NCBI RefSeq assembly: GCF_029360805.1
Contig: NZ_JARKNC010000001.1
Coordinates: 372,001 to 436,000 of the forward strand
Source of the DNA: Daejeonella sp. JGW-45
Lineage (GTDB): Bacteria > Bacteroidota > Bacteroidia > Sphingobacteriales > Sphingobacteriaceae
DNA length: 64,000 nt
Direction of reading: 5' to 3'
In this document: piece after piece, positions 9,121 to 13,682 of the stretch
How the letters are laid out: every line of letters begins with the position of its first letter
Numbering within the stretch: position 1 is the stretch's first letter
Notes under the pieces: model-generated
What the model saw: only the letters and a program-made list of their open reading frames with translations
Told to the model about the DNA's origin: nothing
The model's database searches: none
Translations under genes and position numbers: made by a program

Positions 9121-9432
9121 TTACTCACCTGGTTCCGTATTTCGCTTACGGCTCTTGAAAGTAAAAAAATTTCTCAATTTTCGTAGAGCACCTTTCAAAC
9201 CGAAAATATTGATCCCGGTACCATACTTGGATTTCGGTAAAAGTTCAAAAACGGAAATTTCTAAAATATCGGCGATGTCGTATAACCGGGGGATCTTGAT
9301 TTCGGTTTCTCCATTTTCCATCTTTGAATAGGCGGCCTGTGATATATTTAAATAGAATGCCATGGCATCCTGGCTGATGCCCTTCCGCTGACGCCGTATT
9401 CGTATTGCTTCGCAAATCTTAATTTCTTCCAT
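9121..9432 (-). CDS. XRE-family helix-turn-helix regulator
   Basis: A 103-residue protein with an N-terminal Cro/C1-type HTH at about residues 9-63 (RRQRKGISQDAMAFYLNISQ, then SKMENGE, the usual recognition and third helices). The basic C-terminal tail (FTFKSRKRNTEPGE) has no recognised domain. It is transcribed away from the bacteriocin-like peptide gene at 9562, and an inverted repeat CTATAACCT/AGGTTATAG lies between the two. It is the natural candidate regulator of the cluster to its right; that link is inferred from position. Confidence 0.85.
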   Translation of the reverse strand: MEEIKICEAIRIRRQRKGISQDAMAFYLNISQAAYSKMENGETEIKIPRLYDIADILEISVFELLPKSKYGTGINIFGLKGALRKLRNFFTFKSRKRNTEPGE

Positions 9433-9453
9433 AGGTATTTAAATTCGAAATTC

Positions 9454-9492
9454 CTATAACCTCAGCGACTAATTTACAACTTCAGGTTATAG
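9454..9492. promoter_or_regulatory. Inverted repeat operator candidate between XRE and the peptide gene
   Basis: CTATAACCT at 9454-9462 is exactly inverted at 9484-9492 (AGGTTATAG). The right half belongs to a 22-bp block (9471-9492) that recurs with 19 of 22 identities at 10401-10422, ahead of the membrane protein gene. Its place in a divergent promoter region suggests an operator, probably for an XRE regulator. Confidence 0.5.
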
Positions 9493-9561
9493 TTTCGATG
9501 TCTTTATCTCAAGATTTTAGCCCTAATTCTTAATGGTGAGAAGAAATCTAATTGATCTGTT

Positions 9562-9729
9562 ATGAGAGTCATGTCTGATGAAGAATTGGATCAGCTGCCC
9601 GGCGCAGCTAGCAATTGTTTAACTTCCGTTGTAACAACGGCCGCCGTCGGGGGATTATTTGGTGGGGTAGGCGCAATAATCGGTGCTGCAGCGGCAGCCA
9701 CCGGGCCAAATTGTCTGGCCTGGTGGTAA
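9562..9729 (+). CDS. Bacteriocin-like precursor peptide (55 aa)
   Basis: A small gene coding for 55 residues. An acidic N-terminal leader MRVMSDEELDQLPGA resembles double-glycine type leaders (a D/E-E-L-x-x-L/I-x-G pattern) with a probable cut after GA. The mature part begins ASNCL, is rich in Gly and Ala with GGLFGGVGAIIG (GxxxG-like), has two cysteines (19 and 51) and ends in WW. This is the usual composition of membrane-active class II bacteriocins. A C39 peptidase/transporter-domain gene 1.4 kb downstream would be the matching processing enzyme. ATG codons at 9562 and 9571 are both possible starts. No homologue was checked, so function is inferred. Confidence 0.7.
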   Translation: MRVMSDEELDQLPGAASNCLTSVVTTAAVGGLFGGVGAIIGAAAAATGPNCLAWW

Positions 9730-9737
9730 AAATTATG

Positions 9738-9758
9738 AGGGGTCATAACTTGACCCCT
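9738..9758. terminator. Hairpin between convergent peptide and rhomboid genes
   Basis: GGGGTCA (9739-9745) pairs with TGACCCC (9751-9757) around a 5-base loop, in the 28-bp gap between two convergent genes. No long T-run follows, so it would be a modest bidirectional terminator. Confidence 0.5.
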
Positions 9759-10363
9759 TATATTATATCAGTTATCATCTTCGGATGAATAATTATAGAC
9801 GTGGCTGCTCCTCCCAGGCCGCCACCCACGTGAATACCATAGTCAATTTCCCCCTTATTGAACTTTTTGGTATAAAGTAATATTATCATCAAATACCCAA
9901 CCGCAGAATAGATGTTGGGGATATTATCGGCAAACGGTAAAGAAACATGATTTTCCAATGGGTGTAGTATCAAATAACTGCACATACATCCGATTGCAAC
10001 TCCACTCGCTCCTGCAGAGCTATATGTCATGTCTTTTCGATAAATAAATAGGGACGCCAGGTGCCCCATAAGAAGGCTGCTTATGATTGTTAGAGCTAGT
10101 GTTAATCGTCTTGGATGCGGCCCGGATTCTTCAAGCCCTGAGCAATAGACGTACAGCATGAGAATGTTAATTGCCAGATGCGCTGTATTATTATGCACCA
10201 GTACAGATGAGAATATCCTATAATACTCTTTTTTGTGTATTACACTAGCGGGATGCAGAATCAAAGCCTGAAAAGCCTTTTTGTAGGCGATCGCATAGAG
10301 ACTTACAGCCAAAATAATCGCTAAAAGCGAATAGGTGATATAATTGTCTTCCGGAATAATCAT
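9758..10363 (-). CDS. Rhomboid family intramembrane serine protease
   Basis: A 201-residue polytopic membrane protein with rhomboid hallmarks: HNNTAHLAIN (His62, Asn66) in helix 2, GASG with catalytic Ser120 in helix 4, and DYGIHVGGGLGG with catalytic His178 in helix 6. About six transmembrane segments, the basic rhomboid size. Rhomboids cleave substrates within the membrane. It is convergent with the bacteriocin-like peptide and divergent from the membrane protein at 10464, so it sits inside the peptide locus. A role in peptide processing, immunity or signalling is an inference from position only. Confidence 0.88.
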   Translation of the reverse strand: MIIPEDNYITYSLLAIILAVSLYAIAYKKAFQALILHPASVIHKKEYYRIFSSVLVHNNTAHLAINILMLYVYCSGLEESGPHPRRLTLALTIISSLLMGHLASLFIYRKDMTYSSAGASGVAIGCMCSYLILHPLENHVSLPFADNIPNIYSAVGYLMIILLYTKKFNKGEIDYGIHVGGGLGGAATSIIIHPKMITDII

Positions 10364-10392
10364 ATAAAAAACATTGGTATAAACAATAACGT

Positions 10393-10422
10393 AGGGTTAT
10401 AAATTACAATCTCAGGTTATAG
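10393..10422. promoter_or_regulatory. Second copy of the 22-bp cluster element
   Basis: Positions 10401-10422 match 9471-9492 at 19 of 22 bases, ending in CTCAGGTTATAG; another half-site AGGGTTATA lies just before it (10393-10401). It is in the divergent gap between the rhomboid and the membrane protein at 10464, 42 bp before that start. Confidence 0.5.
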
Positions 10423-10463
10423 GTTGAGTCGGAGCCTTAGTTCAATTTTGTTGTACTAAGCCG

Positions 10464-11114
10464 ATGATAATGACTAGTAAATTTGCCTTCAATCCTTTTG
10501 TGCTCTTCCCCCTGAACATAGCAGTGTTGTTTTTATTAGTATATACTGCCGACACTTTTATCCTCAATGCAAATTTTTATGAGCAGGCCGTAGCTAATAG
10601 CGGGCTTAATTGGGAAACGGTACTGCTAAACACGTCTCCAAAGCTCAAACTTCTCCTTTATACCGCTTCAGTTCTCTTATTGTTACTTAAATATAGCCTG
10701 ATCGCCTTATTGATCTACACTACATTTTACTTAAATGAGATCAAGGTTTCTTATCAGTCGATTTTCAGAATAGTGTGCCTGGCCGAGTTGGTCTTTTTAA
10801 TCCCCGCTGCGATCAAGGTGGCTTGGTTTATCATCTATCCTCCCACAGGCCTGGATCAATGGGCGGCATTTTATCCCCTGTCAATACACTCCGTCTTTTC
10901 CGGAAGCTCTATTCCTGCTGCAATAACATATCCTCTCCAGCTCCTGAATGCTTTTGAGCTGATCTACATTTTAATGCTATCATATTTATTTTATAAGCTT
11001 CTTAAGAATGATTTTGATCAGATGATCAAAATCGTATTGATCTCCTATCTGCCAGGCCTGTTCGTCTGGACGCTCATTGCAAGCTATTTCACTGTCATGC
11101 TTAATCCAAGTTAA
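10464..11114 (+). CDS. Polytopic membrane protein of the peptide locus
   Basis: A 216-residue hydrophobic protein not assigned to a family. Membrane segments are visible at about residues 12-32, 62-88, 100-125, 155-178 and 190-212, with few charged residues outside short loops. The gene ends 10 bp before the likely start of the C39/ABC-membrane protein on the same strand, so they are probably one transcript. A role as an immunity or accessory export protein would fit its place, but nothing in the sequence proves it. The start could also be the ATG at 10470. Confidence 0.75.
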   Translation: MIMTSKFAFNPFVLFPLNIAVLFLLVYTADTFILNANFYEQAVANSGLNWETVLLNTSPKLKLLLYTASVLLLLLKYSLIALLIYTTFYLNEIKVSYQSIFRIVCLAELVFLIPAAIKVAWFIIYPPTGLDQWAAFYPLSIHSVFSGSSIPAAITYPLQLLNAFELIYILMLSYLFYKLLKNDFDQMIKIVLISYLPGLFVWTLIASYFTVMLNPS

Positions 11115-11124
11115 CCCGGCGGAT

Positions 11125-12585
11125 ATGACATGGCTCAAAAACAAGCGGATCAGGAATTCTTTTTTCCGGCAGGTTGATCGCCAGGACTGCGGAATTGCCT
11201 GCCTGATGTCTGTGATATGGTACTTTAATGTGAGGATCGATTACTCAGCGATAAGTGCCTGTACAAAAGCCAAAAGCTGGGGGTTGACCATGCTGGACCT
11301 GAAAAGATTTGCACAGCAGGCCGGCTTCACTGCCCGCGGATTACAGATGAGCCCCGATGATCTTCACGATCAGACCAGCCCGGTTATACTCCATACGGTT
11401 AACTCCAGTGGATCTAATCACTTCATCGTTTATTACTCCTACAACAAACGGAATCAGACCTATCTGATCGGCGATCCTGCCACAGGTGTCGGGGAAATAA
11501 ATTCCCGCGAGCTTGACCAGCGCTGGCAGAGTCGTGCCGGACTGTTACTCCTTCCTGATGGAAATGCAGCTGAAGCCGGCCGCAATGGAAAATGGCGGTG
11601 GTTATTGTCGCTGGTTCACTATGAGAAATTTCTATTGGCCCTGGTAACACTTTTAGGCCTGCTAACCGCAGTTATGGGTCTTAGTCTGGCTATTTATCTC
11701 CAGGTTTTAACCGACAAGATCCTGCCCGTGCGAAATTACCAGTATATGATCACCGGACTCGTAATGCTCGCGACCCTGTTTATTGTCCGGAGTTTTATTG
11801 TCAGTTATCGCCAGCAGATCGTCATTGCTATGGTCAAAGACTTTAACAGCAATCTGGTGCGCGAATTTACGCGCCATCTGCAAAAGCTCCCGGATTATTT
11901 CCTTAACAGCAAAACAACGGGCGATATGGTAGTCCGCTTTAATGATACGCAGAATATCCAGTTTGCCTTTTCCACTGCCGTAAGCCTCATACTTATTGAC
12001 ATGGTCATGCTGATCGCTGTAACCGGTTTTGTATTCTCCTATTCCATACCCGTTGCCATCTCGATCATTATTTTTATCGCTCTCACCATTGCCCTGGCAT
12101 TTCACAGTGCTGATGGCCTTAAAGAACACCAGCAGCGCCTTACCGCTGATTTCTGCCGCACCGATAATATATTGATCTCCGCGGTTAATGATCTGAAGGA
12201 AAGGGGCCCGGATACAAATTTTGATCTCGACCGCAGAGGCTTTTACGACTTTGTGGGCTCGTCTGAAAAATTCTCAACTATTGTGAGAAAACTTTCATTG
12301 AAGTTTGAGATCATGGGTGCCGTCTTTTTTGCCGGCATTATCATCTATAGCTCTTTTTTAGTTATTGAAGGGCATTATTCAAAAGGACAATTCCTCGCAA
12401 TGATCACTTTAATCGCCGGTATTTTCCCGGTGGTTCAACGCATTTGTACTACAGGGATGATCCTGATGGACGGAGTTATTGCGCTGGAACGTGTATATGC
12501 AATGGTGGTCGCTTCAGAAAAAGATGATCATGACCGGCCAGCCGCAGGGAACTTAGGGCTGGCTCACACAGCAAAAGAATGCTAA
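11125..12585 (+). CDS. C39 peptidase-ABC transmembrane protein lacking the ATPase domain
   Basis: 486 residues from ATG 11125; a longer start at 11077 would overlap the previous gene. Residues 10-130 form a C39 bacteriocin-processing peptidase: Gln16, Cys22 in QDCGIAC, His99 in SNHF and Asp117 in GDPATG. Residues about 160-450 are an ABC exporter membrane domain with six helices. The chain ends about 30 residues into the usual linker (after ALERVYAMV), so Walker A, the signature motif and Walker B are all missing; a complete family member would be about 700 residues. Either the ATPase was lost or it is supplied by another protein. It would cut the leader of the peptide at 9562 and pass the product across the inner membrane. 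No HlyD-type partner is in the window. Confidence 0.85.
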   Translation: MTWLKNKRIRNSFFRQVDRQDCGIACLMSVIWYFNVRIDYSAISACTKAKSWGLTMLDLKRFAQQAGFTARGLQMSPDDLHDQTSPVILHTVNSSGSNHFIVYYSYNKRNQTYLIGDPATGVGEINSRELDQRWQSRAGLLLLPDGNAAEAGRNGKWRWLLSLVHYEKFLLALVTLLGLLTAVMGLSLAIYLQVLTDKILPVRNYQYMITGLVMLATLFIVRSFIVSYRQQIVIAMVKDFNSNLVREFTRHLQKLPDYFLNSKTTGDMVVRFNDTQNIQFAFSTAVSLILIDMVMLIAVTGFVFSYSIPVAISIIIFIALTIALAFHSADGLKEHQQRLTADFCRTDNILISAVNDLKERGPDTNFDLDRRGFYDFVGSSEKFSTIVRKLSLKFEIMGAVFFAGIIIYSSFLVIEGHYSKGQFLAMITLIAGIFPVVQRICTTGMILMDGVIALERVYAMVVASEKDDHDRPAAGNLGLAHTAKEC

Positions 12586-12615
12586 CGAACCATTATAAAC
12601 AATCCATCAAATCCT

Positions 12616-12780
12616 ATGAAAGAATTAACCGTAACGATCGTAGCAATAATAATCCTCCTGGCATCGGTTCGTCGGAAACATGACATCATCCCATTAAAAC
12701 CCGATATGAAAAAACAGGTCATCGGGTGCAGGCAGTGCACCGGAAGTTGGGATATAACGGATCCCGGTGAACGCCGTTAG
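12616..12780 (+). CDS. Short ORF after the C39 protein, unknown
   Basis: 54 codons starting 30 bp after the C39 gene. A hydrophobic N-terminus (VTIVAIIILLA) looks like a signal or membrane segment; the rest is polar with a CRQC pair. After its TAG the same frame stays open for 24 codons, then TAA, then 27 more codons with protein-like text (TFDPEEVRAVFHDAVNKAF), so it may be the front of a decayed longer gene. Not recognised. Confidence 0.4.
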   Translation: MKELTVTIVAIIILLASVRRKHDIIPLKPDMKKQVIGCRQCTGSWDITDPGERR

Positions 12781-13199: not shown

Positions 13200-13682
13200 T
13201 CACTTCTTTTTCACATACAAATTCCTTCTCCCAACCTTAGTATATTGAAGTCTTCCCTCGCTTGAAAGTTTCTTAAGAGCTGTTGAAACTTCAGAAGACT
13301 CCGGCTGAATGCCATATGTCGATTCAAACTCCTCGAGGACAGAAACAACGAGTTTGGGTGTTTCGAAAAAGCCGGATTCGAAAAGCTGGTTTACACGGTG
13401 GGTGGTGAGTGCACGACTGCGACGATCGGGCGGAAGCTCAAAGCGGGGTTTGAGATCCAGTTCTATTTTGAATAATTCCGCAGGCTCCACGCCTATCGCC
13501 CGGCAGATAGCGATGCAGTAGCTGAGGTAAGTATCACCCCCATTTTCAATGGACGAAATTGTATTAACGCTGAAGCCCGTCATAGCTGAAATATCCTCCA
13601 GGCTATAGCCGCGATCTTTTCGGAACGCTCTTATCCGCTCTCCAATTTGCCTCGCAGAAGCTTCATCAAAATATTTGCGCAC
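13200..13682 (-). CDS. XRE-family regulator with C-terminal winged-helix-like domain
   Basis: 160 residues. The N-terminal HTH (about 12-70: RIRAFRKDRGYSLEDISAMT, then NTISSIENGG) is of Cro/C1 type. Residues about 95-160 form a second domain that reads as a small winged helix (ALKKLSSEGRLQYTKVGRRNLYVKKK). It is divergent from the hypothetical gene at 13797; an inverted ACATAAC/GTATGTTAT lies at 13681-13704 just upstream of its start and may be autoregulatory. Targets unknown. Confidence 0.82.
   Translation of the reverse strand: MRKYFDEASARQIGERIRAFRKDRGYSLEDISAMTGFSVNTISSIENGGDTYLSYCIAICRAIGVEPAELFKIELDLKPRFELPPDRRSRALTTHRVNQLFESGFFETPKLVVSVLEEFESTYGIQPESSEVSTALKKLSSEGRLQYTKVGRRNLYVKKK

What the first reader, a model, noticed from the sequence alone, without database searches (positions are those of the whole stretch)
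9121..12780. A compact bacteriocin-like peptide locus with a rhomboid protease
Seen: a 55-codon peptide gene with an acidic leader ending LPGA and a Gly/Ala-rich body with two cysteines and a WW end; a rhomboid protease with the Ser120/His178 pair; a multi-span membrane protein; a C39 leader peptidase fused to an ABC membrane domain; and a divergent XRE gene. Known: C39 peptidases cut double-glycine type leaders. Inference: a peptide is made, processed and exported here, with the rhomboid in maturation, immunity or signalling. A rhomboid with a C39 protein and a class II-like peptide is not a combination I know as a described system.
Basis: partly seen in the sequence, partly recalled or inferred. 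Interest (0 to 1): 0.75.

Follow-up and report, generated by a model that had tools for sequence, protein, structure and literature searches.

The report
Membrane-peptide locus: rhomboid and ATPase-less peptidase
A small gene cluster makes a tiny, uncharged, membrane-loving peptide and carries two membrane proteases beside it, one of which looks like a well-known peptide exporter that has lost its ATP-burning engine, so it may handle the peptide in a way not yet described.

Summary
The peptide occurs in 19 of 301 family genomes, 23 of 149 Mucilaginibacter genomes and 1 of 296 phylum genomes (its own). I read 28 peptide loci, window included: XRE gene in 27, rhomboid in 27, multi-span protein in 28, C39 protein in 27, in one layout. 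Rhomboid Ser/His and C39 Gln/Cys/His/Asp are kept in 27 of 27. A 39-bp element shared by both divergent intergenic regions and a covarying RNA hairpin before the peptide start tie the genes together. The mature peptide is the most conserved part (68% mean identity) and mostly uncharged. Best reading: a class-II-bacteriocin-like membrane peptide, leader cut by an ATPase-less C39 protein, with a dedicated rhomboid acting on it in the membrane (immunity or processing). Leader cutting follows from family knowledge; the rhomboid's substrate, secretion and killing are inference. Rhomboid genes in bacteriocin operons have a precedent (caseicin).

The parts
9121..9432 (-). XRE-family HTH regulator, 103 aa, divergent from the peptide gene
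   Evidence: HTH_3 52.1 bits; present in 27 of 28 peptide loci
9454..9492 (.). Operator-like 39-bp element in the XRE/peptide intergenic region; in the window its arms form an inverted repeat CTATAACCT...AGGTTATAG
   Evidence: Motif model learnt on 26 loci; coordinates read. Binding by the XRE protein is inferred.
9527..9542 (+). 5-bp RNA hairpin in the peptide mRNA leader, ending 19 nt before the start codon
   Evidence: 24 loci: all 5 pairs have changes on both sides, 99.2% of cells paired, 0 of 500 shuffles as high; U-G pairs present; no Rfam match
9562..9729 (+). Precursor peptide, 55 aa: 15-aa acidic leader ending LPGA, then a 40-aa uncharged Gly/Ala-rich part with two Cys and WW end
   Evidence: 19 of 301 family genomes; both Cys in 28 of 28 loci; charges counted
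9758..10363 (-). Dedicated rhomboid intramembrane serine protease, 201 aa
   Evidence: PF01694 65.5 bits; catalytic Ser and His in 27 of 27; separate from the genome's other rhomboid match at G000:C1:625293-625880
10384..10422 (.). Second copy of the operator-like element, between rhomboid and multi-span gene
   Evidence: Score 27.8 against a shuffled mean of -11.7, 0 of 40 shuffles as high
10464..11114 (+). Multi-span membrane protein, 216 aa, no Pfam family, some relatives weakly YknW-like
   Evidence: 28 of 28 loci; relatives in 31 of 301 family and 29 of 395 phylum genomes; NCBIfam YknW matched by 4 of 19 relatives, best 7.2e-6, below cut-off; not by the window protein
11128..12585 (+). 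C39 peptidase fused to an ABC-exporter membrane domain, 485 aa, no ATPase domain
   Evidence: PF03412 and PF00664; aligns to residues 16-473 of the 730-aa PCAT1; C39 catalytic residues 27 of 27, ATPase domain 2 of 27

Best explanation
A conserved, self-contained membrane-peptide module. A 55-aa precursor with a double-glycine-type leader is cut by the C39 domain of an exporter-like membrane protein that has lost its ATPase (cutting: family knowledge plus intact catalytic residues). The released 40-aa, mostly uncharged, Gly/Ala-rich peptide with two invariant Cys enters the membrane, helped by the ATPase-free membrane domain and the multi-span protein (inferred). The dedicated rhomboid cuts this peptide inside the membrane, most likely to protect the producer or clear stranded peptide, less likely as the last maturation step (inferred). 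The XRE protein controls both divergent units through a shared operator (inferred from the shared element). Acting on other cells, as class II bacteriocins do, is the likeliest purpose, but is not shown.
For: Same gene order in 28 loci from five genera. Catalytic residues of both proteases kept in 27 of 27 while the ATPase domain is gone in 25 of 27. No ATPase-domain hit elsewhere in the fetched stretches of those 25, and the locus copy is the only C39 match in G001, G215 and G082, of eight genomes asked. The membrane domain is under purifying selection (dN/dS 0.24-0.27 in four pairs, three of them among the same three genomes; a fifth pair was saturated) but is less conserved than in full PCATs at equal C39 identity in the four bins below 0.55. 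Relatives of the multi-span protein sit beside a full-length C39 exporter in 21 of 32 loci without this peptide. The rhomboid clade was met only in peptide loci among 201 genomes. In L130, L133, L136 and L139 and L071 a small protein that looks membrane-spanning by eye follows the other peptide; in the window-type loci the rhomboid stands in that place.
Against: No activity, secretion, transcription or cleavage is shown. L064 lacks the rhomboid and L060 has it in two frames, so it is not indispensable. G037 keeps peptide and rhomboid with no C39 match in its genome. The mature peptide has no Lys/Arg in 25 of 28, unlike most bacteriocins (recalled). The peptide is more conserved than its machinery, unusual for an arms-race toxin (recalled). 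In the top bin (5 pairs) the membrane domain is not less conserved. An ATPase encoded elsewhere was not excluded.
Confidence: 0.45

Rival explanations
1. Ordinary secreted bacteriocin: the C39-membrane protein pairs with an ATPase subunit encoded elsewhere, and the locus works like any PCAT cluster.
For: One phylum relative (L143) encodes the PCAT as two adjacent genes, C39-membrane 450 aa and an ABC ATPase of 263 aa, so split forms exist; two loci in G143 keep the full PCAT.
Against: No ATPase-domain hit in the fetched stretches of 25 loci; lower conservation of the membrane domain in four of five bins; three of eight genomes asked have no other C39 protein to pair with. Stand-alone ATPases were not searched genome-wide.
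Confidence: 0.2
2. Signalling peptide: two-step proteolysis (C39 then rhomboid) makes a pheromone-like fragment read by the XRE protein or another receptor.
For: XRE gene next to the peptide in 27 of 28 loci; the same operator-like element in both intergenic regions; the mature peptide is the most conserved part.
Against: The window XRE protein has 103 aa with HTH matches only, no sensor domain seen; the peptide is hydrophobic.
Confidence: 0.18
3. Envelope-stress or toxin-antitoxin-like device: the peptide acts on the producer's own membrane and the rhomboid is its antidote.
For: Uncharged Gly/Ala-rich 40-mer in the window; hairpin just before the start codon; rhomboid gene convergent with the peptide gene, 28 bp apart.
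Against: Leader plus C39 step points to processing for the membrane or outside; patchy presence (1 of 20 sampled genomes of the window's own genus) fits this and secreted toxins alike; L064 lives without the rhomboid at the locus.
Confidence: 0.12
4. Decaying relic of a PCAT cluster that lost its ATPase and function.
For: Missing ATPase domain, long tree branches, one rhomboid in two frames (L060), one integrase-type insertion (L175).
Against: dN/dS below 0.4 in all parts and pairs where it could be estimated; catalytic residues in 27 of 27; hairpin and operator-like element kept across genera.
Confidence: 0.05

Closest known systems
Peptidase-containing ABC transporters (PCAT1, ComA, LahT type)
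   Same: C39 domain with Gln/Cys/His/Asp and the exporter membrane domain; aligns to PCAT1 residues 16-473
   Different: ATPase domain absent in 25 of 27; two relatives keep it
Class II bacteriocins with double-glycine leader (Pfam PF10439)
   Same: Short acidic leader with GG or GG-like end, Gly-rich core, two Cys; 6 of 20 members match PF10439 at E up to 0.1, best 9.1e-6
   Different: Window peptide below the family cut-off; little or no charge; no separate immunity gene recognised
Caseicin Cas1/Cas2 operons (PMC12634818; section 18 and passages read)
   Same: Class IIa bacteriocin operons that contain a rhomboid protease gene; [quoted passage not shown]
   Different: Lactobacilli, pediocin-like peptide, separate immunity gene; no role proposed for the rhomboid in the passages seen; homology to this locus not tested
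YknWXYZ, SDP-toxin protection in Bacillus (PMC4338810, PMC4887032; passages read)
   Same: YknW, a four-span Yip1-family protein, belongs to a pump tied to protection against a 42-aa peptide toxin with one disulfide; weak profile match of 4 of 19 relatives of the multi-span protein
   Different: Match far below the family cut-off (25.6 against 110 bits) and absent for the window protein; YknXYZ were not seen among the five genes
Rhombosortase (TIGR03902)
   Same: Rhomboid family; 42.5 bits
   Different: Below the cut-off of 84; a GlyGly-CTERM partner was not sought

Membership tests
PCAT (peptidase-containing ABC transporter) | C39 peptidase domain with catalytic residues | tested here: met
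   PF03412 86.3 bits; Gln/Cys/His/Asp in 27 of 27
PCAT (peptidase-containing ABC transporter) | ABC exporter membrane domain | tested here: met
   PF00664 53.1 bits; PCAT1 alignment
PCAT (peptidase-containing ABC transporter) | Nucleotide-binding (ATPase) domain in the same protein | tested here: not met
   Absent in 25 of 27 loci, window included; present in L069 and L070
Class II bacteriocin, double-glycine type | Double-glycine-type leader before a small core | tested here: met
   GG in 21, AG in 4, VG, FG and GA in one each, of 28; GA is named as a GG-like motif in PMC10885120 (passages)
Class II bacteriocin, double-glycine type | Match to PF10439 over its cut-off | tested here: not met
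   Window 18.5 bits against 27.1; 6 of 20 members match at E up to 0.1
Class II bacteriocin, double-glycine type | Antimicrobial activity of the secreted peptide | not testable with these tools
   Needs culture or synthesis
Class II bacteriocin, double-glycine type | Dedicated immunity gene | tested here: inconclusive
   No known immunity family among the five genes; rhomboid and multi-span protein are candidates only
Rhomboid protease | Rhomboid family match and Ser/His dyad | tested here: met
   PF01694 65.5 bits over 22.6; Ser and His in 27 of 27
Rhombosortase TIGR03902 | Score over the curated cut-off | tested here: not met
   42.5 against 84 bits
YknW family NF052650 | Score over the curated cut-off | tested here: not met
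   Best 25.6 against 110 bits; 4 of 19 members match at E up to 0.1, not the window's

The most novel reading that the evidence does not exclude
An ATP-independent peptide maturation route: a PCAT that has shed its ATPase lives on as a membrane-bound leader peptidase and insertase, working in sequence with a dedicated rhomboid that cuts the same peptide inside the membrane. This would be both a new role for rhomboids (immunity to, or maturation of, a ribosomal peptide) and a new way of life for an ABC exporter fold.
Probability: 0.33. Interest if true: 0.82.

Novelty: new variant of a known kind. Interest (0 to 1): 0.63.

Why it matters
Bacterial rhomboids have few known natural substrates (recalled), and here a candidate substrate, a Gly/Ala-rich membrane-like peptide, is encoded next to its own dedicated rhomboid, so a substrate question becomes a simple co-expression test. 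The ATPase-less C39 protein also offers a natural test of what the membrane domain of a PCAT does without ATP, and the two G143 loci that keep the ATPase give a ready comparison.

Tried and rejected
Rejected: ORF 12616-12780 as a sixth gene (no relative in the other loci at E 1e-6). Rejected: a shared chromosomal address next to cinA; the neighbour found in 17 of the first 19 loci, which I first took for cinA, is MauE, and ten window genes tested, flank genes and that ORF, found no relative in the other loci. Rejected: relic. Left open: how often the ATPase domain was lost. The best tree places the two full-length proteins inside the ATPase-less set (2 label changes), but the tests do not reject all ATPase-less rows as one side of a branch (p-AU 0.089) nor all but the window (0.193), and long branches are in play. 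Considered: anti-phage defence; in PADLOC only the XRE protein matched, to HTH models. Plasmids with the peptide and phages with the multi-span protein: no match. No solved structure matched the multi-span family. Papers: in the listings I saw no report of this locus or of a PCAT without ATPase; these listings were partly cut to the best rows, and the library lacks most subscription papers.

Rows dropped before counts. Tree: L179 (near copy of L176), L143 and L161. Motif work: L179; L068 has no XRE side; on the other side intergenic stretches of 200 bases or more (L060, L071, L175) and L064 (no rhomboid). Hairpin alignment: 24 of the 27 leaders printed; left out were L179 and L180 as near copies, and L071, whose leader shows no such hairpin, which goes against the reading; 23 of 28 (without L179, L060, L064, L068, L071). 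One search scored at most five C39 candidates a genome, so I do not use its tally as a C39 count.
Full report
What is there. The window lies in a 4.1-Mb genome (G000:C1:372001-436000). The ten peptide relatives that carry names are all Mucilaginibacter, and their contig lengths equal those of genomes of group g15 in the window's own family, so I take g15 as Mucilaginibacter and the window as a relative in the Sphingobacteriaceae (family name recalled). The window's own genus is not named. The five genes of the finding are real and correctly placed.

Conservation. With the 55-aa peptide as query, 19 of 301 genomes of the family match, in 5 of 25 genera, the window's own included; 1 of 20 sampled genomes of the window's own genus has it. 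In g15, 23 of 149 genomes match. In 296 genomes drawn from the phylum only the window's own matches. I read 28 loci: the window, 19 fetched and 8. By profile search of all frames: XRE in 27 (missing in L068), rhomboid in 27 (missing in L064; in two frames in L060), multi-span protein in 28, C39-membrane protein in 27 (missing in L071). Where present, the genes have the same order and strands: XRE(-), peptide(+), rhomboid(-), multi-span(+), C39(+). L175 has an integrase-like gene inserted between rhomboid and multi-span gene, and L071 has two extra small ORFs there.

The two proteases are intact; the ATPase is not. Rhomboid Ser and His are present in 27 of 27; C39 Gln, Cys, His and Asp in 27 of 27 (for L060 only the piece with Ser and His was counted). 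Yet the C39 protein ends about where the membrane domain ends: the ATPase domain is found in 2 of 27, both from one genome, G143, and the window protein aligns to residues 16-473 of the 730-residue PCAT1. No ATPase-domain hit lies elsewhere in the fetched stretches of the other 25 (profile from three sequences). Of eight genomes asked, G001, G215 and G082 have the locus protein as their only C39 match, G000, G233, G224 and G143 have others, and G037 has none. At equal C39 identity the membrane domain is less conserved without the ATPase in the four bins below 0.55 (for example 0.262 against 0.354 in the 0.35-0.45 bin); the top bin, with 5 pairs against 22, goes the other way (0.747 against 0.625). 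dN/dS of the membrane domain is 0.24-0.27 in four pairs, three of them among the same three genomes; a fifth pair was saturated. So it is not junk. A tree puts the peptide-locus C39 proteins on one side (support 100/99) with the two full-length ones inside; a single ATPase-less group is not rejected (p-AU 0.089).

The peptide. Both Cys are invariant in 28 of 28. The leader ends in GG in 21, AG in 4, VG, FG and GA (window) in one each; the mature part has no charged residue in 21 of 28 and no Lys or Arg in 25 of 28. It is the best conserved element: mean identity 0.68 for the mature part, 0.49 leader, 0.53 XRE, 0.40 rhomboid, 0.39 multi-span, 0.34 C39, 0.23 membrane domain (23 loci). Its resemblance is to class II bacteriocins, below cut-off for the window.

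Regulation. A 39-bp element learnt on 26 XRE/peptide intergenic regions, seeded with a stretch of L067, was sought in 23 rhomboid/multi-span regions with leave-one-out models: in 20 it beats all 40 shuffles, and in three (L062, L068, L069) 39 of 40. In the window the copies lie at 9454-9492 and 10384-10422. L071 has next to no match on the peptide side (4.8, against 17 to 55 elsewhere). Just before the peptide start a 5-bp hairpin is kept in the 24 loci aligned (L071, which lacks it, was left out): all five pairs show changes on both sides, 99.2% of cells pair against a shuffled mean of 86.3 (0 of 500), one of the five measures, further pair types, was reached by 8 of 500, and slid structures fall to 61-70%. 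Fourteen of the 118 cells are U-G pairs, which argues for RNA rather than a DNA palindrome. No Rfam family matches.

Where the parts come from. The multi-span protein has relatives in 31 of 301 family genomes (the 19 with the peptide and 12 others) and 29 of 395 phylum genomes. I fetched 32 stretches around such relatives in genomes without the peptide match (L130-L161). No rhomboid hit lies in any of them; 21 have a C39 exporter of full length, L143 a split one, L140 and L156 one in pieces. Two of their small peptides match the peptide profile weakly (L151, L159; 1e-4 and 2e-4). I printed 35 ORFs from 17 of these loci; nine loci show a GG-like leader by eye (L130, L131, L133, L134, L136, L143, L146, L151, L159). 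A thioredoxin-like gene lies between multi-span gene and exporter in the two I tested (L130, L136), and L071 has one too. Some relatives stand in other company, such as a TMEM260-like gene in L145, so the family is not only for peptides. Four of 19 members match YknW weakly, not the window's. The rhomboid clade is separate from the rhomboid found in nearly every genome: in 201 genomes the 11 top hits (194 bits or more) are the peptide-locus copies, the next scores 175 (the 11 belong to loci in the query alignment, so only the gap informs). A MauE-family membrane redox gene lies in 26 of 28 fetched loci, on the XRE side except in L071; the window and L069 lack it. That would fit a disulfide between the two Cys; G000 has two MauE matches elsewhere over the cut-off.

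How it most likely works. Shown: conserved module, conserved catalytic residues, absent ATPase domain, shared sequence elements, purifying selection. From family knowledge: C39 cuts the leader at the cytosolic face. Inferred: the neutral peptide then sits in the membrane; the rhomboid, whose known substrates tend to be membrane segments with small residues (recalled), cuts it there. I favour producer protection or clearance over maturation because the rhomboid can be lost (L064) while peptide and C39 gene stay, and because it stands where L130, L133, L136, L139 and L071 carry a small, by eye membrane-spanning, protein after their other peptide. This is a modest preference.

Against this reading: L064 and L060 lack an intact rhomboid frame at the locus; G037 keeps the peptide without any C39 match, though its contig ends next to the locus; high conservation of the peptide is not typical of a toxin (recalled); an ATPase in trans is not excluded; nothing is known of expression.

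Known and new. A rhomboid gene in bacteriocin operons is in print (caseicin, PMC12634818: section 18 and passages read), with no role given in what I saw. I saw no report of this locus or of a C39-membrane protein without ATPase in the listings, from a library that lacks much of the literature. Verdict: new variant of a known kind, with a bolder reading open.

Noticed in passing
window 9527-9542 and the same place in 23 related loci: Short covarying RNA hairpin directly before the peptide gene, with wobble pairs; no Rfam family.
   Followed up: yes
L053-L071 and L174-L181, mostly 0.4-4 kb from the peptide on the XRE side: A MauE-family redox membrane gene is in 26 of 28 loci; in the 23 Mucilaginibacter (g15) loci an RteC-like gene borders all 23 and SusC- or SusD-like genes 19 (families of the model genes; the SusC-like label rests on position and recall).
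   Followed up: partly
L143 6776-8944: A PCAT split into two adjacent genes, C39-membrane and ATPase.
   Followed up: partly
L071 (G037): Peptide-rhomboid part sits beside a second GG-leader peptide, a small protein, the multi-span gene and a thioredoxin-like gene, without a C39 gene in the stretch.
   Followed up: partly
L175 6268-7413: Integrase-type gene inserted between rhomboid and multi-span gene.
   Followed up: no
window 13200-13682: Second HTH gene 0.6 kb downstream of the C39 gene, no relative in the other loci at E 1e-6.
   Followed up: no
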